Below are positions 18,287 through 30,947 of a stretch of 64,000 nt of DNA, piece after piece. Below the pieces are notes generated by a model that was not told the DNA's origin, made no database searches, and worked only from the letters and a program-made list of their open reading frames with translations. The position numbers and the translations under genes were made by a program. The DNA is from Nostoc sp. TCL26-01 (lineage in GTDB: Bacteria; Cyanobacteriota; Cyanobacteriia; Cyanobacteriales; Nostocaceae): assembly GCF_013393945.1 (NCBI RefSeq), contig NZ_CP040297.1, positions 4,062,001-4,126,000 on the forward strand, given 5' to 3'. Positions within the stretch are counted from its first letter, which is position 1. Every line of letters begins with the position of its first letter.

Positions 18287-20011
18287 ATGGTAGCACTCAC
18301 AGATAAAGCTGAAAAACGGCTCACCATACAAACTGGGGAGATTGCGGAAGATACGACAGCAATTCGCTCTTTAGATTGGGATCGCGATCGCTTTGATATT
18401 GAGTTCGGTTTGCAAAACGGGACTACATATAACTCATTTCTGATACGCGGTGAGCAGATTGCTCTAGTAGATACTTCCCATGAAAAGTTTCGTCAGCTTT
18501 ATTTAGATACGCTCACAGGATTAATCAATCCTCAAGATATCGATTATTTAATTGTCAGTCACACTGAACCAGACCACAGTGGTTTAGTCAGAGATTTGCT
18601 GCAAATGGCTCCCAATATTACCGTTGTGGCTTCTAAAGTAGCAATCCAATTTTTAGAAGATTTGGTACATCAACCATTTAAGCGGCAGATAGTCAAAAAT
18701 GGCGATCGCTTAGATTTAGGCAACGGTCACGAAATGGAGTTTGTCATCGCTCCTAATTTACACTGGCCTGACACCATCTTTAGCTTCGACCACAAAACCC
18801 AAACCCTCTACACCTGTGATGCTTTCGGAATGCACTATTGCGATGAGCGTACCTTCGATGAAGATTTAAAAACCATTGAAGCAGATTTTCACTATTATTA
18901 TGAGTGCTTGATGGGGCCGAATGCGCGATCTGTATTGTCTGCCCTCAAGCGGATGGGAGAATTACCCAGCGTGAAAATGATTGCCACTGGTCACGGGCCA
19001 TTACTTTACCACAACGTCGAGGAATTAATCGGACGTTACCGCAAGTGGAGTCAAAACCAAAGCAAGCCAGAAACAACCGTCGGCATATTCTACGTTTCTG
19101 AGTATGGGTATAGCGATCGCCTAGCCCAAGCAATCATCAATGGTATCAGCAAAACTGGTGTGGGGATAGAAATAGTAGATTTAGGTTCACCAGTCGATTT
19201 ACAAGAATTACGCGAACTAGTTGGACGTTGTGCGGGATTGGTAATTGGTACACCTCCCGCTTCCGGTGCAGCCAGTATTCAAGCCGCACTCAGCACCGTT
19301 TTAGGTTCTGCCAACGAAAAACAAGCGATCGGTATATTTGAAACTGGCGGTGGGGATGATGAACCGATAGATACTCTCCTGACTAAATTCCGTAACTTAG
19401 GTTTGACAACAGGTTTCCCCGCCATTCGCATCAAACAAACCCCTGGTGAAAACACTTATAAACAGTGTGAAGAAGCAGGTACAGACTTAGGTCAGTGGGT
19501 AACACGCGATCGCAGCATTAAAGCAATGAAGTCTTTAGGTGCTGATTTAGATAAAGCACTAGGTAGACTTAGTGGTGGTTTGTATATTATTACAGCCAAA
19601 AAAGGTGACGTATCCAGTGCCATGTTAGCTTCCTGGGTAGCACAAGCCAGCTTCAAACCTCTGGGATTCTCCATCGCAGTCGCCAAAGATCGGGCGATTG
19701 AATCATTAATGCAAGTAGGCGATCGCTTTGTCCTCAACGTCCTAGAAGAAAGCAATTACCAAAAACTCATGCGTCACTTCCTCAAACGGTTCGCCCCCGG
19801 TGCTGATCGTTTTGAAGGCATCCGCACCCAACCAGCCCAAAACGGCGCACCCATCCTCACCGATGCCCTAGCTTACATCGAGTGCGAAGTCGCCAGCCGC
19901 ATGGACTGCGGCGATCATTGGGCAGTCTACAGCACAGTCTACGCCGGCAGCGTTTCCAAACCAGAAGCATTGACAGCAGTCCACCACCGGAAGGTGGGAA
20001 ATCACTACTAA
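18287..20011 (+). CDS. flv3: flavodiiron protein, Flv3-type
   Basis: A 574-residue cyanobacterial flavodiiron protein that with Flv1 reduces O2 to water using electrons from the photosynthetic chain. Domains: metallo-beta-lactamase-like diiron domain (about 30-260), flavodoxin-like domain (about 270-410) and C-terminal flavin reductase domain (about 430-570). The diiron ligands are canonical: SHTEPDHSG (H, E, D, H), LHWPD, CDAFG and TGHGP. This identifies the Flv3-type subunit rather than Flv1. An AAGGAGAG ribosome site precedes the ATG. The partner-type gene lies at 29235 on the same strand, with about 9 kb of accessory DNA between. Confidence 0.92.
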   Translation: MVALTDKAEKRLTIQTGEIAEDTTAIRSLDWDRDRFDIEFGLQNGTTYNSFLIRGEQIALVDTSHEKFRQLYLDTLTGLINPQDIDYLIVSHTEPDHSGLVRDLLQMAPNITVVASKVAIQFLEDLVHQPFKRQIVKNGDRLDLGNGHEMEFVIAPNLHWPDTIFSFDHKTQTLYTCDAFGMHYCDERTFDEDLKTIEADFHYYYECLMGPNARSVLSALKRMGELPSVKMIATGHGPLLYHNVEELIGRYRKWSQNQSKPETTVGIFYVSEYGYSDRLAQAIINGISKTGVGIEIVDLGSPVDLQELRELVGRCAGLVIGTPPASGAASIQAALSTVLGSANEKQAIGIFETGGGDDEPIDTLLTKFRNLGLTTGFPAIRIKQTPGENTYKQCEEAGTDLGQWVTRDRSIKAMKSLGADLDKALGRLSGGLYIITAKKGDVSSAMLASWVAQASFKPLGFSIAVAKDRAIESLMQVGDRFVLNVLEESNYQKLMRHFLKRFAPGADRFEGIRTQPAQNGAPILTDALAYIECEVASRMDCGDHWAVYSTVYAGSVSKPEALTAVHHRKVGNHY

Positions 20012-20957: not shown

Positions 20958-21169
20958 GTGAAACGTGACTCCATTTATTACCAAATTTTTAAGCGATTTC
21001 CAGGGTTAATATTTGAACTTGTTGATAACCGTCCTGCACAGGCGCAAAACTATAGATTTGAGTCAGTGGAGGTGAAAGAAACTACTTTTCGGATTGATGG
21101 TGTTTTCTTACCACCAGAAGGCGCAACACCCAGAGTTATCTTTTTTGCAGAAGTTCAATTTCAGAAAGA
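20958..21169 (+). CDS. Rpn/DUF2887 family nuclease-like protein, exon 1
   Basis: The first 70 codons plus two bases of a PD-(D/E)XK-superfamily Rpn/DUF2887 protein (GTG start, KRDSIYYQIFKRFPGLIFEL, then FRIDGVFLPP and FFAEVQFQK, the presumed nuclease core). The gene is cut by a group II intron after GA of the codon at 21168. Joining to 23515 restores GAT and gives ...VQFQKDEALYHRFF, the sequence expected for the family. The joined reading frame is 858 bases (285 residues). Without splicing, the frame runs into the intron and stops at 21204. Confidence 0.8.
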
Positions 21170-23514
21170 GTGCGGCTCGTTCTCAGCAGGAACCCCTAGA
21201 AACTAGGGATTTATGGCTAAGGTACATTCTGAAAAATCAAATTCAAAATGTATAACTGTTCATTTGATGTAGGTGAGCCAAGTACCCTAGAAAAGCAAGA
21301 CCTACCCTTGAGGAGACAAGTGACTCCCTATCTGCCCACAGTGACCATACTCGGAATGATGGAGGCTGAAGCTGGGAACAGGGCGCAATCAGTTGTAAAA
21401 CAAGCAGGTAACAACACTGGCGCTAACGGGGAGATGGCAAGGGTAAACAAGTCCTGAAAAAGTGTCTTAGGAATTAAGCTACAACCTGAACAACCAATGT
21501 AGACCACATCCTCTAGATTCTCACAGCATCATTCTTTTAATAGCTGTCATCTCCGAGAAGAGGATAGGCAAAGTGGACTGCCCAAAACCATCAAACAATC
21601 AAAAGAACGGAACGAGTAAAAACGATGTATTGGTCTGGGGAAAGGTCGAAAACCCCAGTAGGTAAGACGAGATACGGAACCCCAAAAACATCGGGTAGGA
21701 CAGAACGTAACTGTTGTGAGGTATTCAGAAAACGCTTGCTTAGAGTAAAGCATGGTTAGACACGATAGAAATATCAGTGAACTATGGAAATCACTACCCT
21801 GGAAGAAATTTCGGGCGAATCTTTTCCGCTTACAAAGAAGAGTGTTTAAAGCTGTTCTAGCTGGAGACAAGCGTAAAGCAATGTCCCTACAAAAGCTAAT
21901 CCTGAAATCTCGTGCGGCTAGGTTTCTGGCAATTCGTCAAGTAACACAGCTAAACGCTGGGAAAAAGACTGCGGGAATTGATGGTAAAACTGCCTTAACT
22001 TATGAGGAGAGATTTCACCTCGAACTGTCACTCAGACAGCCAAACTGGTATCACAACAAACTCAGACAGATACCAATACCCAAGAAAGACGGCTCCACCA
22101 GATACCTGAAAGTTCCAACTATTGCAGACAGGGCTTGGCAATGTCTAGCCAAATACGCATTAGAACCAGCGCACGAAGCCACCTTTCATGCCCAAAGCTA
22201 CGGATTTAGAACGGGGCGCTCTGCCCATGATGCCCAAAAACAGATTTTCCAAAATCTCAGTTCCCATGCAAACGGCATCAACAAAAGAATCCTTGAGCTT
22301 GACATAGAAAAGTGCTTCGACAGAATAAATCACTCAACCATCATGGAAAACCTGACTGCCCCAAAAGGGCTAAAACTGGGGATATTCCGATGCCTAAAAG
22401 CAGGAATCAACCCGGAATTTCCAGAACAAGGTACTTGTCAAGGTGGGGTAGTGAGTCCACTGTTAGCAAATATCGCTCTGAATGGTATAGAAGATATACA
22501 CAAATATCACGTCAAAAGAGGATGCAAAATTACAGCCAATACCCCCACAAAGGATATTGTCAATGCCTGTGTCCGATACGCCGATGATATGGTATTTTTC
22601 CTAAGACCTGAAGACAATGCAACTCTAATACTTGACCGCATCAGCCAATTCCTAGCAATAAGAGGGCTAAAAGTTAGCAAGAAAAAGACAAAGCTTACCG
22701 CTTCGACAGATGGTTTTGACTTTCTCGGTTGGCGATTCTACGTCCAACAAAACGGAAAATTTAAAAGTGTTCCCTCAGAGGAAAACTACAAAGCATTCCG
22801 CAACAAAGTCAAGAACATCGTCAATAGCTCGAATTATGGCGCTACTGTGAAAGCTCAAAAGCTTTCCCCAATAGTCAGAGGATGGCGAAATTACCATAAG
22901 TTCTGTAAGATGGACGGTGCTAAATGGAACCTCTATCACATACAATACAGAGCTTTTAAGGTGTTTAACCGGGAAACAAAACTTGACCACAAATCTAGTA
23001 AGAAGTTGCTAGACCAAGCGTTTCCACTGGTTCCTTACTCCGAAAACCGTCACACCAAAGTCAAAGGAAATAAATCCCCTTTTGATGGAGATTTAGTTTA
23101 CTGGAGTGAACGTAACAGTAAACTATACGACGGCATTACCTCGAAACTATTAAGGAAGCACAGCCATACTTGTGGGTATTGTGGTCACAAATTGACTTCA
23201 ATTGAACGAGTGCATCTACATCACTTAGACGGTAATCACGGCAACTGCAAGGTATCAAACCTCATGGTAGTACACGAAAGCTGCCACGATTACATCCACA
23301 TGGGCAAAAGGGAAAGGGAGCTACGTTCTACAACGCCAATTGGTCGGGAAGTTACCGAGGAATATCTAGAAAATCATCCTTGGTAAGCCAAAGCCAAGCG
23401 TGGCAAAGACAGAAACCTTAACCTTCAAGAATATCGGAAGCTGGATGAGGCGAAAGTCTCACGTCCAGATTTAACAGAGAGGGGCGGAGCGTCATAGCTC
23501 CCCTCGACTCTACC
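21170..23514 (+). mobile_element. group II intron
   Basis: A 2345-base group II intron. The 5' end is GTGCGG. An RNA region of about 580 bases (domains I-III) precedes the maturase ORF. After the ORF, domain V is seen at about 23441-23475 (GCTGGATGAGGCGAAAGTCT and ACGTCCAG stem around a GAAA tetraloop), and domain VI as the hairpin GAGGGGCGGAGC/GCTCCCCTC with a likely branch A near 23507. IBS1 GAAAGA (21164-21169) could pair with TCTTTT at 21533-21538 as EBS1. The 3' edge is set by reading frame and may be off by one base. Confidence 0.9.
21752..23386 (+). CDS. ltrA: group II intron reverse transcriptase/maturase with HNH domain
   Basis: A 544-residue intron-encoded protein that helps splicing and target-primed insertion. 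An N-terminal RT0-like part is followed by RT motifs: AGKKTAGIDGKTALT (near 70), RQIPIPKKDGSTRYLKVPTI, AHDAQKQIFQNL, LELDIEKCFDRINH, GTCQGGVVSPLLANIALN and the catalytic CVRYADDMVFF near 278. The maturase X region follows (SPIVRGWRNYHKFC). The C-terminal HNH endonuclease has HTCGYCGHKL, VHLHHLDGNHGNCKVSNL and HESCHDYIH. All motifs look intact, so the intron may still be mobile. Confidence 0.95.
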   Translation: MVRHDRNISELWKSLPWKKFRANLFRLQRRVFKAVLAGDKRKAMSLQKLILKSRAARFLAIRQVTQLNAGKKTAGIDGKTALTYEERFHLELSLRQPNWYHNKLRQIPIPKKDGSTRYLKVPTIADRAWQCLAKYALEPAHEATFHAQSYGFRTGRSAHDAQKQIFQNLSSHANGINKRILELDIEKCFDRINHSTIMENLTAPKGLKLGIFRCLKAGINPEFPEQGTCQGGVVSPLLANIALNGIEDIHKYHVKRGCKITANTPTKDIVNACVRYADDMVFFLRPEDNATLILDRISQFLAIRGLKVSKKKTKLTASTDGFDFLGWRFYVQQNGKFKSVPSEENYKAFRNKVKNIVNSSNYGATVKAQKLSPIVRGWRNYHKFCKMDGAKWNLYHIQYRAFKVFNRETKLDHKSSKKLLDQAFPLVPYSENRHTKVKGNKSPFDGDLVYWSERNSKLYDGITSKLLRKHSHTCGYCGHKLTSIERVHLHHLDGNHGNCKVSNLMVVHESCHDYIHMGKRERELRSTTPIGREVTEEYLENHPW

Positions 23515-24160
23515 TGAAGCTTTGTATCATCGCTTTTTTACCGAGTCGATGATGTATTTGAACCGCAATCAATCCCAATACGATGATTGGTACTGTGTGG
23601 TAATATTTCCATCACGCTCTTTAGAGCCAAACGATAAAAAAACTCATCGTCTGTTTTTAAACAGCGACCAAGTGCAGCGCATTTATTTGGATGAGTTAGG
23701 TACTGCTGATACTCTACCAATAGGTATCAATTTAATGCAGTTGACGACCGCCTCAGACAAAGCAATGGCAGAGCAAGCCAAGCAACTAATTCAACGGGTA
23801 AAATTAGAAGAAACAGGTAGACTACCGAAAACAGAAATCATAGATATTATTACAACAATTGCTGTTTACAAGTTTTCGTCTTTGAGTAGAGAGGAAGTAG
23901 AAGCTATGCTAGGACTGAATTTAGAGCAGACAAGAGTATATCAAGAAGCCAAAGCTGAAGGTCTAGAACAAGGTCTAGAACAAGGTCTAGAACAAGGTCT
24001 AGAACAAGGTCTAGAACAAGGTCGAAAACAAGGTCTAGAACAAAGGGAAGCTGAATTGTTGAAAGTTGCTGTCCCCCTGTTACTAAAAACTGGGATGAGT
24101 GTAGAACAGATTGCTCAACAATTTAATGTTGCTGTAGAATCTGTGGAGAAATACAGGTAA
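23515..24160 (+). CDS. Rpn/DUF2887 family nuclease-like protein, exon 2
   Basis: The continuation of the intron-split gene, from ALYHRFFTESMMYLNRNQ and WYCVVIFPSRSLEP to a helical C-terminal part. Members of this family are annotated as recombination-promoting nuclease/putative transposase. A tandem GLEQ run (GLEQ repeated five times, then GRKQGLEQ) at about 23959-24040 is encoded by 12-base repeats GGTCTAGAACAA and is typical of the family's tail. Taken alone, it lacks a good start codon, so production depends on intron splicing. Confidence 0.8.
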
Positions 24161-24320: not shown

Positions 24321-24731
24321 ATGATAACTGTGAGCTTGACTGCTGTAGCTACTGCGATCGCAACTACCCTGTGGACTAAAGCACAGGAGAAAATCGGCGA
24401 AAATATTGGTGATGCTTTCTGGGCTGCTCCTGGTAAGTTGAGAGAATTACTGCGCCGCAAGAATAAAGTCCCATCTCTTACCAGTAATGAACCACAACCA
24501 TTAGATTACGGTCAAGCAGTGCTGGAACTGACACAAGCCGCACAAGATCCCGAAATTGCTCAAGCAGTTTTAGAAGTTGAAGCAGCAGTTAATAATGATC
24601 AGTCTGAGGCTGCTAAGGAAATTAAAAATAAAGCCGAAGAAATCCAGTCACATCCGTCAGTTATTAATAATGGTGAGATTAAGAATTTGTTTTTTCAATC
24701 TCAATTTCATGGCCCAGTCACATTTAATTGA
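24321..24731 (+). CDS. N-terminal domain of a NACHT protein, ended by an in-frame TGA
   Basis: A 136-residue reading frame. It starts with a hydrophobic helix (MITVSLTAVATAIATTLW), then KAQEKIGENIGDAFWAAPGKL, a charged helical stretch and QAVLELTQAAQDPEIAQAVL, and ends HGPVTFN. This resembles the helical N-terminal region in front of cyanobacterial NACHT domains. The stop TGA at 24729 is in the same frame as the NACHT gene, which continues open from 24732. It may be a separate small protein, or the front of one 1154-residue protein cut by a nonsense codon. Confidence 0.65.
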   Translation: MITVSLTAVATAIATTLWTKAQEKIGENIGDAFWAAPGKLRELLRRKNKVPSLTSNEPQPLDYGQAVLELTQAAQDPEIAQAVLEVEAAVNNDQSEAAKEIKNKAEEIQSHPSVINNGEIKNLFFQSQFHGPVTFN

Positions 24732-24836
24732 CTACAGCCGTCCCCAGGGGAGGATGGGACAAAGTTAACTCCCGATGACTGGCGTGAAGTCTGTCGTGAA
24801 ATAATTGCAGAACGGCGTAAGCTGACAACAAATCCT

Positions 24837-27785
24837 TTGACATCAACTGAAGGAGTCGCACTGCAAGTTGATGATGTTTACGTACCACTGGGATTAGTTG
24901 AGCGTAAAAAACAGTCGAAGCCTCAAGATAATATTTCTCCAGAACAGGGTTCAGAACTGTACAAGGAGACGGAAATTACCAAAACTTATGAGCATAATGC
25001 TTTTTTGGAAGAAGTTCTCAAACAGAAGAACACGCCGAAAAGTCAAGGTAAGCGAATTGCCATTATTGGCGAACCAGGTGCAGGAAAAACAACATTATTA
25101 CAGCAGATTGCTGATTGGGTATCTCGTAAGATTCCCCAGTCGATTGTCATTTGGGTATCTTTAGCAGATTTACAAGAAAAACAAAAATTAGAGAAATATC
25201 TATTCGAGACTTGGCTAAGTGCTGCTGTGAAGAAAAAAGGGAAAGCTAAACCTACTCAGCAACAGGATGATGATTTTGTTACTCTGTTTAATCAAAATCA
25301 AGTGTGGCTGCTACTTGATGGATTAGATGAAATGTCTGCATCTAATCCTTTAACAGAAATTGCCCGCCAATTTCGGGAATCAGGGTTGATTTCTCAAGCG
25401 CGAATTGTGCTGACTTGTCGGGTTAATCTGTGGGATGGTAGTAGTAATGCACTTGATGATTTTGATATCTATCGCACTTTAGATTTTTCTTATCCAGAAC
25501 AGGTAGAGAAATTTATTCACAAATGGTTTGCTGCTATTCCCGACACTGGAAATCAGTTATGTATCGCGTTGCAAGAACCGGGTAAAGAAAGGATTCAGGA
25601 TTTAGTGAAAAATCCTCTGCGATTGACACTGCTGTGCTTTAATTGGCAATCAAAAGATGGCAAATTACCAGATACTCAAGCGGGACTCTATCAGCAATTT
25701 GTTGATGACTTCTACAAGTGGAAACAAGACGAATTTCCCATAACATCTCACCAAGAGCAACAACTCAATCTCAAGCTTGGGAAACTAGCTAAAGCAGCTA
25801 TAGACGAAAAAGAAATCCGTTTTCGCTTGCCGCAAGATTTTGTTAATTCCGTCTTTAAGGAACAAGAAGATGAGATGCTGCTGAACTTGGCACTAAATCG
25901 CGGCTGGCTGAACTGTATAGGCGTAGATGATAAAAAAGTTTATGCTTTCTTTCATGCTTCATTTCAAGAGTACTTTGCTGCTAAAGCAATTAATCACTGG
26001 CATTTCTTTTTAAAGCACGTTCCTCATGATCCGAGTCAACGAACTTATCGCATCTTTGAACCGCAGTGGAAGCAAACAATATTACTTTGGTTAGGACGAC
26101 CAGAAGAAGATATCAAACAGCAAAAGCAAGAGTTTATTGATGCTTTAGTTAGTTTCAAAGACGGATGTGAAAAATTTTATGAATATCGCGCCTATTTTTT
26201 AGCAGCCGCAGGCATTGTAGAGTTTAGAGATTATCTTAAAGCAGATAAAATAATCAAACAAATTGTCAACTGGACAATTAATAGTCGAAGTTCAATCCAA
26301 GAGGAAGCTAGTTCAGCACTGCAACAAACAGACCGTAAAAAAGCGATCGCGGCTTTGGTGCAACGGCTGCAATCACAGCGTGTGGATAACTACACCCGTA
26401 GGGAGGTAGCAGAAAGCTTAGGGAGAATCGACCCAGGAAATCCAGATGCGATCGCGGCTTTGGTGCAACTGCTGCAATCACAGGATGTGGATAACGACAC
26501 CCGTTGGCGGGTAACAGATAGCTTAGAGAAAATTGGTACAGGAAATCCAGATGCGATCGCGGCTTTGGTGCAACTGCTGCAATCACAGGATGTGGATAAC
26601 AACACCCGTAAGTGGGTAGCATATATCTTAGGGACAATCGACCCAGGAAATCCAGATGCGATCGCGGCTTTGGTGCAACTGCTGCAATCACAGGATGTGG
26701 ATAACAACACCCGTAAGTGGGTAGCAGAAAGCTTAGGGACAATCGGTAAAGGAAATCCAGATGCGATCTCGGCTTTGGTGCAACTGCTGCAATCACAGCG
26801 TGTGGATAACGACACCCGTAGGCAGGTAGCATATAGCTTAGGGACAATCGACCCAGGAAATCCAGATGCGATCGCGGCTTTGGTGCAACCGCTGCAATCA
26901 CAGGATGTGGATAACAACACCCGTAAGTGGGTAGCATATATCTTAGGGACAATCGACCCAGGAAATCCAGATGCGATCGCGGCTTTGGTGCAACCGCTGC
27001 AATCACAGGATGTGGATAACGACACTCGTAGGCAGGTAGCATATATCTTAGGGAAAATCGGTAAAGGAAATTCAGATGCGATCGCGGCTTTGGTGCAACT
27101 GCTGCAATCACAGGGTGTGGATAACGACACTCGTAGGCAGGTAGCATATAGCTTAGGGAAAATCGGTAAAGGAAATCCAGATGCGATCGCAGTTTTGGTG
27201 CAACTGCTGCAATCACAGGGTGTGGATAACGGCACTCGTAGGCAGGTAGCAGATAGCTTAAGGACAATCGACCCAGGAAATCCAGATGCGATCGCGGCTT
27301 TGGTGCAACTGCTGCAATCACAGGATGTGGATAACGACACCCGTAGTCGGGTAGCAGATAGCTTAGGGACAATCGGTACAGGAAATGCAGATGCGATCAC
27401 GGCTTTGGTGCAACTACTGCAATCACAGGATGTGGATAACTATACCCGTTGGCAGGTAGCATCTAGCTTAGGAAGAATCGGTACAGGAAATCCAGATGCG
27501 ATCACGGCTTTGGTGCAACTACTGCAATCACAGGATGTGGATAACTATACCCGTTGGCAGGTAGCAGATAGCTTAGGGAGAATTTTACAAGATAATAAAC
27601 ATCGCTTTGAGGTAGTTAAAACTTTAAGTGGTTATTGGCAACTCGATTATCAATACTACAATTTAGCCTGGAAATGCGCCCAGAATATGCCTTACCCCGA
27701 TTTCTATCAAGCTTGGCATCAGCATAATTTTGCCACTCGCACCATGCGAACCTTAAAGAAAATCCTTTTCACCAGAATCATTTAA
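24837..27785 (+). CDS. NACHT NTPase with twelve near-identical HEAT repeats
   Basis: A STAND-type ATPase of 982 residues from a TTG at 24837; the frame is open back to 24732. The NACHT domain has Walker A GEPGAGKTTLLQQ (near residue 79), Walker B WLLLDGLDEM (near 157), LTCRVNLWDGSS, and KNPLRLTLLCFNW plus FFHASFQEYFAAKA in the helical part. Residues about 505-924 are twelve 35-residue HEAT repeats (AALVQLLQSQDVDN type), then a short C-terminal cap. NACHT proteins of this kind are anti-phage sensors in known cases (bNACHT). No ATG or GTG exists in frame before Walker A, and the region from 24732 (KLTPDDWREVCREIIAERRK) looks like conserved coding sequence, so the true start is in doubt. Confidence 0.8.
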   Translation: MTSTEGVALQVDDVYVPLGLVERKKQSKPQDNISPEQGSELYKETEITKTYEHNAFLEEVLKQKNTPKSQGKRIAIIGEPGAGKTTLLQQIADWVSRKIPQSIVIWVSLADLQEKQKLEKYLFETWLSAAVKKKGKAKPTQQQDDDFVTLFNQNQVWLLLDGLDEMSASNPLTEIARQFRESGLISQARIVLTCRVNLWDGSSNALDDFDIYRTLDFSYPEQVEKFIHKWFAAIPDTGNQLCIALQEPGKERIQDLVKNPLRLTLLCFNWQSKDGKLPDTQAGLYQQFVDDFYKWKQDEFPITSHQEQQLNLKLGKLAKAAIDEKEIRFRLPQDFVNSVFKEQEDEMLLNLALNRGWLNCIGVDDKKVYAFFHASFQEYFAAKAINHWHFFLKHVPHDPSQRTYRIFEPQWKQTILLWLGRPEEDIKQQKQEFIDALVSFKDGCEKFYEYRAYFLAAAGIVEFRDYLKADKIIKQIVNWTINSRSSIQEEASSALQQTDRKKAIAALVQRLQSQRVDNYTRREVAESLGRIDPGNPDAIAALVQLLQSQDVDNDTRWRVTDSLEKIGTGNPDAIAALVQLLQSQDVDNNTRKWVAYILGTIDPGNPDAIAALVQLLQSQDVDNNTRKWVAESLGTIGKGNPDAISALVQLLQSQRVDNDTRRQVAYSLGTIDPGNPDAIAALVQPLQSQDVDNNTRKWVAYILGTIDPGNPDAIAALVQPLQSQDVDNDTRRQVAYILGKIGKGNSDAIAALVQLLQSQGVDNDTRRQVAYSLGKIGKGNPDAIAVLVQLLQSQGVDNGTRRQVADSLRTIDPGNPDAIAALVQLLQSQDVDNDTRSRVADSLGTIGTGNADAITALVQLLQSQDVDNYTRWQVASSLGRIGTGNPDAITALVQLLQSQDVDNYTRWQVADSLGRILQDNKHRFEVVKTLSGYWQLDYQYYNLAWKCAQNMPYPDFYQAWHQHNFATRTMRTLKKILFTRII
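26343..27605. repeat. 105-bp tandem repeat array encoding HEAT units
   Basis: Twelve consecutive 105-base units. Most contain GATGCGATCGCGGCTTTGG, so most carry a HIP1 octamer, followed by CAACTGCTGCAATCACAGGA. Units differ at few positions (RRQ/KWV/WQV and GTIDPG/GKIGKG variants). Confidence 0.95.
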
Positions 27786-29234: not shown

Positions 29235-30947
29235 ATGCCCCAAACTAAACCCCGCGACGTACAAATCCTGCCCATTGGCACAGATACAACAGTCCTGCGA
29301 TCGCGCAGTTGGACAAGACTCAGATTTGAGATTGAGTATGCTTTAGCCAAGGGAACGACAGCTAATTCTTATTTAATTCAAGGCGATAAAATTGCCTTGA
29401 TTGACCCGCCTGGAGAAACTTTTACCCAAATTTATCTAGATGCTTTGCAAAAACGGCTAGATTTAAAAACTATAGATTATGTGATTCTCGGTCACATTAA
29501 TCCTAACCGAGCAGCTACCTTAAAAACTTTGTGGGAACTAGCACCCCAAATTACCTTTGTTTGTTCTAACCCTGGTGCAATCAATTTGCGAGGCGCATTA
29601 GAAAATCCTGATTTACCAATATTGATTATGCGGGGAGACGAAACCCTCGATTTAGGCAAGGGACATAATTTGCAATTTGTGCCTACTCCCAACCCCCGCT
29701 ACGCCGACGAACTCTGCACCTATGATCCCCAAACAGAGATTCTTTACTCAGATAAACTATTTGGGGCGCATATCTGCGGGGATCAAGTATTTGATGAAGG
29801 TTGGGAAACTATCAACGAAGACCGCCGTTATTATTATGATTGCTTGATGGCTCCCCATGCCCGGCAAGTGGAAACTGCCTTAGATAAATTGGCAGATTTA
29901 CCAGTACGCCTATATGCCACGGGACACGGCCCCTTGGTGCGTTACGGCTTAATCGATCTGACTCATGCCTATCGGGAATGGAGTCAACAGCAGACATCAG
30001 CAGACTTGACAGTAGCCTTGATTTATGCTTCAGCCTATGGGAATACAGCAACCTTAGCTCAAGCGATCGCTCGTGGGATTACAAAAGCTGGTGTAGCGGT
30101 AGAATCAATTAACTGCGAATTTGCCGCCCCAGAGGAAATCCAAGCAGCAATAGAAAAATCGGCTGGCTTTGTCATTGGTTCGCCTACGCTGGGCGGTCAT
30201 GCACCCACACCAGTACAAACAGCTTTAGGTATTGTCTTATCGACTGCGACTAACAATAAACTAGCTGGGGTGTTTGGTTCCTTTGGTTGGAGTGGTGAAG
30301 CCGTTGATTTAATCGAAGGTAAGTTAAAAGACGCTGGTTATCGCTTTGGTTTTGATGCCATCCGCGTCAAATTTAAGCCCAACGAAGTCACACTGCAACT
30401 ATGCGAAGAAGCGGGAACCGATTTTGCCCAAGCATTGAAGAAAGCCAGGAAAGTCCGCACTCAAAGTCTCCCGGCTACTAGTGTAGAACAAGCCGTGGGT
30501 AGAATTGTCGGTTCCCTATGTGTTGTCACAGCCAAGCAAGGGGAAATATCTAGCGCCATGTTAGCCTCGTGGGTAGCACAAGCCAGCTTTAATCCCCCTG
30601 GTTTAACCATTGCTGTTGCCAAAGACCGCGCCGTAGAAACACTGACACACTCTGGTAACAAATTCGTACTCAACATTCTCAAAGAAGGCAGTCACTTAGG
30701 CTTGATGAAGCAATTCCTCAAACCCTTTGCCCCAGCCGAAGACAGATTTGCTAATGTCACCACCGCAGCAGCCGAAAATGGTAGCCCTGTACTTGAAGAT
30801 GCCCTTGCATACTTAGAGTGTTCAGTCCAAAACCGGATGGAATCTGGCGATCATTGGTTAGTTTATGCCACTGTTGAAAATGGCAAAGTCCTCAATCAAG
30901 ATGGCGTGACAGCAGTGCATCATCGCAAATCCGGCAATCATTATTAA
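29235..30947 (+). CDS. flv1: flavodiiron protein, Flv1-type
   Basis: A 570-residue flavodiiron protein with the same three-domain layout as the gene at 18287. The diiron site is altered: the H-x-E-x-D-H motif reads GHINPNRA, the next His is replaced (NPRYADE), and the Asp position reads SDKLFG. Only TGHGP is kept. This substitution pattern is known for Flv1, which works with Flv3 in oxygen photoreduction. The flavodoxin-like (ALIYASAYGNTATLAQAI) and flavin reductase (AMLASWVAQASFNPPGLTIA) domains look normal. Confidence 0.9.
   Translation: MPQTKPRDVQILPIGTDTTVLRSRSWTRLRFEIEYALAKGTTANSYLIQGDKIALIDPPGETFTQIYLDALQKRLDLKTIDYVILGHINPNRAATLKTLWELAPQITFVCSNPGAINLRGALENPDLPILIMRGDETLDLGKGHNLQFVPTPNPRYADELCTYDPQTEILYSDKLFGAHICGDQVFDEGWETINEDRRYYYDCLMAPHARQVETALDKLADLPVRLYATGHGPLVRYGLIDLTHAYREWSQQQTSADLTVALIYASAYGNTATLAQAIARGITKAGVAVESINCEFAAPEEIQAAIEKSAGFVIGSPTLGGHAPTPVQTALGIVLSTATNNKLAGVFGSFGWSGEAVDLIEGKLKDAGYRFGFDAIRVKFKPNEVTLQLCEEAGTDFAQALKKARKVRTQSLPATSVEQAVGRIVGSLCVVTAKQGEISSAMLASWVAQASFNPPGLTIAVAKDRAVETLTHSGNKFVLNILKEGSHLGLMKQFLKPFAPAEDRFANVTTAAAENGSPVLEDALAYLECSVQNRMESGDHWLVYATVENGKVLNQDGVTAVHHRKSGNHY

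What the first reader, a model, noticed from the sequence alone, without database searches (positions are those of the whole stretch)
24321..27785. NACHT-HEAT gene split by one in-frame TGA in a leaky context
The 136-codon ORF and the NACHT-HEAT ORF share one frame, parted only by TGA at 24729. Downstream of the stop, the sequence from 24732 on (KLTPDDWREVCREIIAERRK) looks conserved and coding. No ATG or GTG is available in that frame before the Walker A motif; the only early option is TTG inside NPLTSTEG. The stop is followed by CTA (TGA C...), a context reported as weak for termination. So the gene is a fresh pseudogene, is read through, or makes two products from one message. NACHT proteins are known phage sensors, so a switchable split would be notable.
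Basis: partly seen in the sequence, partly recalled or inferred. Interest (0 to 1): 0.72.

Follow-up and report, generated by a model that had tools for sequence, protein, structure and literature searches.

The report
Leaky stop in bacterial immune genes
In many cyanobacteria an immune-sensor gene carries a conserved stop codon followed by a conserved RNA knot, which most likely lets a few ribosomes read on, so that one message makes many free effector proteins and a few copies fused to the sensor that would trigger them.

Summary
In detail: ORF 24321-24731 and the NACHT-HEAT frame (to 27785) share one frame, parted only by TGA-CTA-CAG. It is not a fresh pseudogene. Of 67 distinct relatives holding both parts, 66 have them in one frame and 64 have a single TGA between them. 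In 75 distinct loci with any in-frame downstream ORF the stop is TGA in 75, +4 is C in 75 and +11/+12 are CG in 75, whether a NACHT or an NB-ARC sensor follows. Eight nucleotides after the stop lies a covarying pseudoknot: 96% of cells paired in 67 sequences; 8.8 of 10 pairs against 5.3 after synonymous randomisation in 127. The peptide beyond the knot evolves as protein in that frame (dN/dS 0.30), yet no start codon is shared and 5 of 73 loci have none before Walker A. A covariance model finds three strong copies in this genome and hits in 114 of 208 family genomes. Sister loci without the element mostly give the sensor its own ATG and its own copy of the effector's amyloid-like motif. Best reading: programmed UGA readthrough makes free effector plus a minor effector-sensor fusion. 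No experiment has tested it.

The parts
24321..24731 (+). Small ORF, 136 aa: predicted helical, effector-like domain (Bell-like by layout only) with a C-terminal low-confidence tail that ends at the TGA
   Evidence: 24 relatives; AlphaFold2, mean pLDDT 73: helices within residues 6-119, residues 118-136 under 50; dN/dS 0.34; 73 sequences, 1704 pairs with pS under 0.6
24729..24731 (+). In-frame TGA, inferred readthrough site
   Evidence: (75/75 TGA, no condition put on the stop codon)
24732..24739 (+). 8-nt spacer CTACAGCC; +4 is C in 75/75
24740..24744 (+). Pseudoknot stem S1, 5' arm (GTCCC)
   Evidence: 109 of 127 sequences have all five S1 pairs, through 18 different arm pairs
24748..24752 (+). 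Pseudoknot stem S2, 5' arm (GGGAG)
   Evidence: 93.7% of cells paired, two of five pairs with changes on both sides
24756..24760 (+). Pseudoknot stem S1, 3' arm (GGGAC)
   Evidence: 98.2% of cells paired, three of five pairs with changes on both sides
24761..24768 (+). Loop 3, conserved AAAGTYAA
24769..24773 (+). Pseudoknot stem S2, 3' arm (CTCCC)
24729..24774 (+). Whole element as matched by covariance model R1 (66.4 bits; the other two strong hits of the genome are C1:785831-785873 minus and C1:5668046-5668088 plus, 60.4 bits each; next best 18.3)
   Evidence: 150 of 2414 candidates scored
24774..24836 (+). Coding stretch between the element and the first possible start codon; evolves as protein in the readthrough frame
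   Evidence: 48 relatives, codons 16-34: dN/dS 0.30; other frames 0.68 and 1.75
24732..27785 (+). Sensor half: NACHT (residues 108-267 of this half), HEAT array, C-terminal NCC-H domain
26343..27583 (+). HEAT array, 11.8 copies of a 105-bp unit (90% matches)

Best explanation
The TGA at 24729 is a programmed readthrough site. Most ribosomes stop there and release a small helical effector protein whose C-terminus is an amyloid-like tail. A minority, helped by the UGA-C(UA) context and by an H-type pseudoknot that starts 8 nt downstream, decode UGA with a near-cognate tRNA (which one is not known; tRNA-Trp is a guess) and make an effector-tail-NACHT-HEAT fusion. The fusion is the sensor: on recognising a trigger its NACHT part oligomerises, brings the tails together, and these template the excess free effector, which then acts (inferred: membrane damage and cell death). 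Shown by sequence: conserved in-frame TGA, covarying pseudoknot, protein-like evolution after the stop, no shared start codon, no SelB. Inferred: that readthrough happens and its rate; more loosely (about 0.55): the amyloid templating, the trigger and the killing.
For: 66 of 67 distinct loci with both parts in one frame, 64 with a single TGA. TGA, +4 C and +11/12 CG in 75/75 (loci found by protein similarity, no condition on the stop). Named genomes: 62 of 73 loci have an in-frame ORF of more than 75 codons behind the stop, all 62 TGA, 61 with C...CG (overlaps with the first set). Phylum sample: 8 of 19 loci looked at, all 8 TGA-C. Pseudoknot: 96.0% of 670 cells paired, 5 pairs and 63 cells with changes on both sides, 0 of 500 shuffles as high on these, sliding by 1-3 columns gives 30-58%; RNAalifold finds S1 by itself; 8.80 of 10 pairs against 5.29 +/- 0.10, maximum 5.59, in 200 synonymous randomisations. 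Synonymous difference in codons 1-15 is 0.12 against 0.34 in codons 16-34, whose dN/dS is 0.30. No shared start codon. The element also precedes NB-ARC-TPR, NB-ARC-APAF1_C, AAA, protein kinase and PsbP-like ORFs. Sister loci lacking the element: 8 of 10 rows picked have a sensor with its own ATG and motif; the 75 element loci have the motif pattern before the stop in 57 and after it in 0. UGA-CUA and structure about 8 nt 3' of the stop mark viral readthrough signals (PMC3542737, PMC4178896, passages). SelB: 0 of 20 genomes over cut-off.
Against: No peptide, ribosome-profiling or reporter data. Most loci are related by descent, so the counts are not independent events. One covariation measure is weak: further pair types, 148 of 500 shuffles as high; in the wider set pairs with changes on both sides are matched by 297 and further types by 29 of 500. 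Minimum-energy folding, which cannot show pseudoknots, gives other folds in many sequences; pairing of the stop itself with AAGUYA-type loop bases also fits but without covariation. Ten of 127 junctions pair at 6 or fewer of the 10 positions: four Okeania, L242, L243, L245, L251, L305, L306. One model hit has TAG (L329) and one TGA-A (L334). Some downstream ORFs are cut short (e.g. L027, L057, L079, L310, L331). Relatives of the sensor exist without the junction: 20 of 20 fetched sensor loci lacking the small ORF and the own paralogue L005. That +4 C is the leakiest context in bacteria is not shown by the passages read: one cites +4A for E. coli and +4C for yeast. 18 of 75 upstream tails lack the motif pattern. 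The effector has no PDB look-alike and no Pfam, NCBIfam or PADLOC family.
Confidence: 0.82

Rival explanations
1. Two separate proteins: the pseudoknot is a coupling or entry signal, and after termination ribosomes re-initiate for the sensor at a non-standard codon near the stop.
For: The window element holds a Shine-Dalgarno-like GGGGAGG; a record can annotate such a locus as two CDSs, e.g. the Tolypothrix plasmid.
Against: Among 48 type-A loci codon 1 after the stop is CTA (40), CCA (5), CTG (2) or CCG (1); the most shared ATG/GTG/TTG position occurs in 27 of 73 loci and 5 of 73 have none before Walker A. Re-initiation would not need one frame, yet 66 of 67 loci with both parts keep it. Two-gene sister loci do have an ATG 20-27 nt after the stop (8 rows).
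Confidence: 0.11
2. The ribosome jumps the stop (in-frame stop hop or bypass) instead of decoding it.
For: The product would be almost the same; a review notes that in-frame stop hopping could explain some supposed readthrough (PMC5009743, passage).
Against: The last sense codon recurs in frame within ten codons after the stop in 0 of 75 loci, so no matched landing codon; the same passage knows of no natural case.
Confidence: 0.04
3. Selenocysteine insertion or a reassigned UGA, with the RNA structure acting like a SECIS element.
For: Bacterial SECIS elements lie just 3' of UGA (recalled).
Against: SelB is under cut-off in 20 of 20 genomes including this one, while 2 of 14 control genomes pass; TGA ends other long frames (20 of 96). 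tRNA-Sec and suppressor tRNAs were not searched.
Confidence: 0.01
4. Pseudogene or sequencing error.
For: A single stop in an otherwise open frame.
Against: Same stop in dozens of genomes; purifying selection on both sides of it.
Confidence: 0.01

Closest known systems
Viral type II and type III readthrough signals (alphavirus UGA-CUA/CGG with 3' stem-loop; murine leukaemia virus gag-pol UAG with compact pseudoknot); PMC3542737 and PMC4178896, passages seen
   Same: UGA followed by CUA; 8-nt spacer; compact H-type pseudoknot; a minor C-terminally extended product from one message
   Different: Bacterial chromosomal and plasmid genes; UGA-C combined with a pseudoknot; no homology claimed; joins an effector to a sensor; readthrough not measured
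Bacterial amyloid signalling sequence (BASS) systems: Bell effector gene next to an NLR gene, sharing a motif (PMC7889193, PMC8086366, passages seen)
   Same: Small helical effector with a C-terminal motif next to a NACHT or NB-ARC sensor; some sister loci found here have the two-gene, two-motif layout
   Different: Here the sensor has no motif and no start codon of its own; it would get both by readthrough. The words stop codon and readthrough occur 0 times in either paper's main text
bNACHT / bacterial NLR-related defence proteins (e.g. bNACHT25, PMC12169576, seen in a search listing only)
   Same: NACHT STAND NTPase
   Different: Those are single ORFs (recalled); here an N-terminal effector half is parted by a stop

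Membership tests
Programmed stop-codon readthrough signal | Two ORFs in one frame parted by one conserved stop | tested here: met
   (66 of 67 in frame, 64 with a single TGA)
Programmed stop-codon readthrough signal | Leaky stop context kept in evolution | tested here: met
   TGA-C in 75/75; UGAC and UGA-CUA are named leaky in PMC3542737, mainly for eukaryotes and their viruses; leakiness in cyanobacteria untested
Programmed stop-codon readthrough signal | 3' RNA structure about 8 nt after the stop | tested here: met
   ten of 127 junctions pair at 6 or fewer of 10 positions
Programmed stop-codon readthrough signal | Downstream region under protein-level selection in the same frame, without its own start | tested here: met
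Programmed stop-codon readthrough signal | Extended product seen by experiment | not testable with these tools
   no reads, no peptides
BASS / Bell-NLR amyloid signalosome | Small helical effector domain next to an NLR | tested here: met
BASS / Bell-NLR amyloid signalosome | Match to a BASS or Bell profile | not testable with these tools
   profiles not held; Pfam, NCBIfam and PADLOC have no hit for the small ORF
BASS / Bell-NLR amyloid signalosome | Same motif at effector C-terminus and sensor N-terminus as separate genes | tested here: not met
   0 of 75 element loci carry the motif pattern in the 80 residues after the stop; so not a classic two-gene BASS pair, though it may work like one
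Selenoprotein | SelB present | tested here: not met
Known Rfam family | Match at the junction | tested here: not met
   three sub-threshold matches, none at the junction

The most novel reading that the evidence does not exclude
The element is the first known family of bacterial readthrough pseudoknots: a portable RNA joint, spread through one class of Cyanobacteriota, that has been recombined between unrelated effectors and unrelated sensors or enzymes and sets their ratio from one message. Because UGA is read by RF2, any drop in RF2 activity or in termination during infection would raise the fusion and arm the system, so translation fidelity itself may be an input.
Probability: 0.5. Interest if true: 0.95.

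Novelty: new variant of a known kind. Interest (0 to 1): 0.9.

Why it matters
Programmed readthrough with a stimulatory pseudoknot is known to me from viruses of eukaryotes; a conserved bacterial element of this kind, in immune-type genes, did not appear in the listings of six paper searches (the top 15-20 rows of each were seen, and the library lacks most subscription journals). It would explain how an NLR lacking its own amyloid motif can still seed its effector, gives a simple answer to how a low sensor to effector ratio is fixed, and means that many cyanobacterial loci are annotated as a hypothetical protein plus a truncated sensor. It is directly testable with a dual reporter in E. coli.

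Tried and rejected
Pseudogene, sequencing error, selenocysteine and stop hopping were considered (see rivals). A stem that pairs the stop codon itself (UGACU with AGUYA) fits 97.6% of cells but shows no covariation and is left open. A longer hairpin seen in minimum-energy folds of type-A loci was dropped because it does not extend to the NB-ARC loci; this was judged by eye. Fold search of the small ORF against the PDB gave nothing (best E 2.1). Rfam gave nothing at the junction. A viral-contig scan with a strict junction pattern found 0 (exact match only, so weak evidence). A pattern search of the own genome with one mismatch allowed gave 22 hits, three of them exact, against 65 for the reversed control pattern; the covariance model settled which matter.

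Limits of the counts. The 126 of 127 TGA count is not independent: named and distant loci entered that pool only if they had TGA, C and CG, and model R1 itself contains the TGA; the counts without such a condition are those. The 75 loci are in frame by definition; one search gives the frame count without that condition. Loci L257-L290, L311-L315 and L317-L320 were fetched but not picked up by the script and are in no count. R1 used 42 of 51 chosen junctions; nine were left out beforehand (four Okeania, L220, L242, L243, L245, L251). Region fetches were a choice of hits from the printed parts of the lists. The ten rows of the two-gene comparison were picked by me from loci without the element; L246-L249 and L252-L255 were not run through it. 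The output was cut in the middle; those loci are covered. One search was an empty placeholder script.
Full report
Observation. The window holds an ATG-started ORF of 136 codons (24321-24731) whose stop TGA is followed by CTACAG; the same frame then runs without a stop to 27785. Pfam finds NACHT, a HEAT array and a C-terminal NCC-H domain in the second half and nothing in the first. TTG 24837 is the first ATG/GTG/TTG-type start after the stop.

The split is conserved. The small ORF was searched in 217 genomes of the family (144 with a match) and the start of the sensor half likewise (145 of 217). In the printed lists the open frames around small-ORF matches are mostly about 130-170 codons (two exceptions, L088 and L111, are fused but have lost the NACHT part), and those around sensor matches mostly several hundred to over a thousand. 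Among loci L001-L131, 67 distinct ones match both parts: 66 have them in one frame, and 64 have exactly one stop between them, TGA. The exceptions are L106 (other frame), L013 (three stops, sensor with its own ATG) and L036 (an extra TAA inside the small ORF). Of 83 distinct small-ORF loci, 75 have an in-frame downstream ORF of more than 75 codons, whatever it encodes: TGA in 75 of 75, +4 C in 75, +11/+12 CG in 75, consensus TGA-CTA-CAG-TCG. L038, in frame but with its own ATG and motif, was left out of the 75, as were L013, L033, L036, L080, L081, L082 and L106. The window's own genome has three such junctions; the other two precede an NB-ARC-TPR sensor (Pfam run on one of them, L003; L002 looks the same).

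Not every relative of the sensor uses the junction: 20 fetched sensor loci with no small-ORF match (L112-L131) have other N-termini, four of them open in frame far upstream and 16 behind an ordinary upstream stop, and the own paralogue L005 is one long ORF with another N-terminus.

Named genomes. A scan of one genome for each of 84,980 species gave 73 loci, among them Nostoc, Anabaena, Fischerella, Cylindrospermum, Calothrix, Scytonema, Brasilonema, Tolypothrix, Dolichospermum, Aphanizomenon, Okeania, a Xenococcaceae MAG, Oscillatoria and Phormidium. Of the 73, 62 have an in-frame ORF of more than 75 codons behind the stop; all 62 are TGA and 61 show the C...CG junction (the exception L163 is the L038 locus again). 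Many of these genomes are also behind the G handles, so counts must not be added. In a sample of 386 genomes over the phylum 47 have a small-ORF match; of 19 of those loci looked at, 8 have the in-frame ORF and all 8 are TGA-C; several others end in TAA or TAG (L246-L249, L252, L253, L255).

RNA element. A MAFFT alignment of 67 distinct junctions supports an H-type pseudoknot: S1 pairs columns 12-16 with 28-32, S2 pairs 20-24 with 41-45, the spacer after the stop is 8 nt, loop 3 is AAAGTYAA. Of 670 cells 96.0% pair; five pairs have changes on both sides in 63 cells, against 20.5 in shuffles, with 0 of 500 shuffles as high; sliding the partners by one to three columns gives 30-58%. Against this, the number of further pair types is matched by 148 of 500 shuffles. 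RNAalifold, which cannot draw pseudoknots, finds S1 unprompted. In a wider set of 42 sequences S1 keeps 97.6% of 210 cells and 38 double-change cells against 13.7 (0 of 500), though the number of pairs with double changes is matched by 297 of 500 shuffles. In 127 distinct junctions the mean is 8.80 of 10 pairs; re-drawing synonymous codons, with the same scoring, gives 5.29, standard deviation 0.10, maximum 5.59 in 200 runs, so the protein alone does not explain the pairing. All five S1 pairs stand in 109 of 127, through 18 different arm pairs. Ten junctions pair at 6 or fewer positions: four Okeania, L242, L243, L245, L251, L305, L306. The window junction forms all ten pairs (read).

Is the stretch after the stop translated? 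Among 48 type-A loci, codons 16-34 after the stop have dN/dS 0.30 in the readthrough frame and 0.68 and 1.75 in the other two, while codons 1-15 have a synonymous difference of only 0.12 against 0.34, as expected where an RNA element overlaps code. The small ORF is under purifying selection too (dN/dS 0.34; 73 sequences, only the 1704 pairs with pS under 0.6 used). A separate start is unlikely: of 73 loci in which Walker A could be located, 5 have no ATG, GTG or TTG between the stop and Walker A, and the most shared start position occurs in 27. Hopping is unlikely as well: the last sense codon recurs in frame within ten codons in 0 of 75.

A portable joint. Covariance model R1 scores 66, 60 and 60 bits at three places of the own genome and 18 at the next. 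It hits 114 of 208 family genomes at E up to 0.01 and 30 of 373 genomes drawn over the phylum at E up to 0.001: 17 in the family, ten in other families of the order, three elsewhere in the class, none outside the class. Twenty hits chosen because no small-ORF match was printed there all sit at TGA-C; 19 of 20 have at least 127 in-frame codons behind the stop. Upstream parts include a second type of small ORF and, in L306, a different one, neither in Pfam. Downstream parts include NB-ARC-TPR (L293, L309), NB-ARC-APAF1_C (L251), NACHT (L301, L304, L325), AAA (L308), protein kinase (L291) and, on a Tolypothrix plasmid, a PsbP-like protein that the record annotates as a separate CDS. Of 16 hits read closely, 14 are TGA-C, one TAG-C (L329) and one TGA-A (L334); in four the downstream ORF is 32-108 codons long.

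Why the split? The small protein is predicted as helical with a low-confidence tail, with no PDB look-alike. Its tails resemble the bacterial amyloid signalling motifs that Bell-type effectors share with neighbouring NLRs (PMC7889193 and PMC8086366, passages; the likeness is my judgement, the profiles were not at hand). A natural comparison supports this. In loci without the element (L013, L038, L106, L206, L225, L226; L154 and L163 are L013 and L038 again) the sensor has its own ATG 20-27 nt after the stop and carries the K-A-KIG motif itself; in the 75 element loci the motif pattern lies before the stop in 57 and after it in none. L221 has a separate ORF without the motif and L217 none, so the rule holds in 8 of the 10 rows picked. 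L106 and the element locus L078 carry the same type of NACHT sensor in the two layouts (compare). Readthrough would thus do by recoding what other loci do by duplicating the motif.

Mechanism. UGA followed by CUA or CGG, and RNA structure beginning about 8 nt after the stop, mark viral type II readthrough; the murine leukaemia virus signal is a compact pseudoknot after an 8-nt spacer (PMC3542737, PMC4178896, passages). Readthrough is most frequent at UGA in bacteria (PMC5289835, passages); the same text cites +4A, not +4C, for tRNA-Trp misreading in E. coli, so the role of +4C here is open. Selenocysteine is unlikely: SelB is under cut-off in 20 of 20 genomes while 2 of 14 controls pass. The step from readthrough to amyloid templating and cell death is inference.

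Literature. Six searches listed no report of readthrough in bacterial NLR genes or of this element among the rows shown; PMC12261475 and PMC8195603 were searched for the words and do not use them. The original BASS paper was not read. Verdict: a conserved, very probably functional recoding element; a new variant of a known kind, in a new setting.

Noticed in passing
window 20958-21206, 21752-23386, 23522-24160: A group II intron reverse transcriptase/maturase ORF sits between two pieces of one DUF2887 gene (profile positions 1-69 before it, 72-200 after it), which suggests an intron inserted in that gene.
   Followed up: partly
window 23958-24043: In the second DUF2887 piece a 12-bp unit is repeated 7.2 times (EQGL repeats).
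   Followed up: no
window 26343-27583: The HEAT array has 11.8 units of 105 bp at 90% matches, with nine GCGATCGC sites; such alike units suggest recent expansion of the sensing part.
   Followed up: no
window 18287-20011 and 29235-30947: Two flavodiiron-type proteins (ODP lactamase, flavodoxin, flavin reductase domains) flank the region.
   Followed up: no
L088 and L111: Small ORF fused without a stop to the later part of a sensor whose NACHT domain is missing: probably decayed loci.
   Followed up: partly
L332 1504-1794, and L333: The element is followed in frame by a 97-aa ORF with no Pfam match, ending in DDSDS.
   Followed up: no
L329: The one junction read here with TAG in place of TGA; its upstream ORF (278 codons) looks like a hydrolase by eye, not tested.
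   Followed up: no
L212, L213, L214, L216: Okeania junctions keep TGA-C and CG but do not form the pseudoknot at the usual positions; by eye they may use two consecutive short hairpins.
   Followed up: partly
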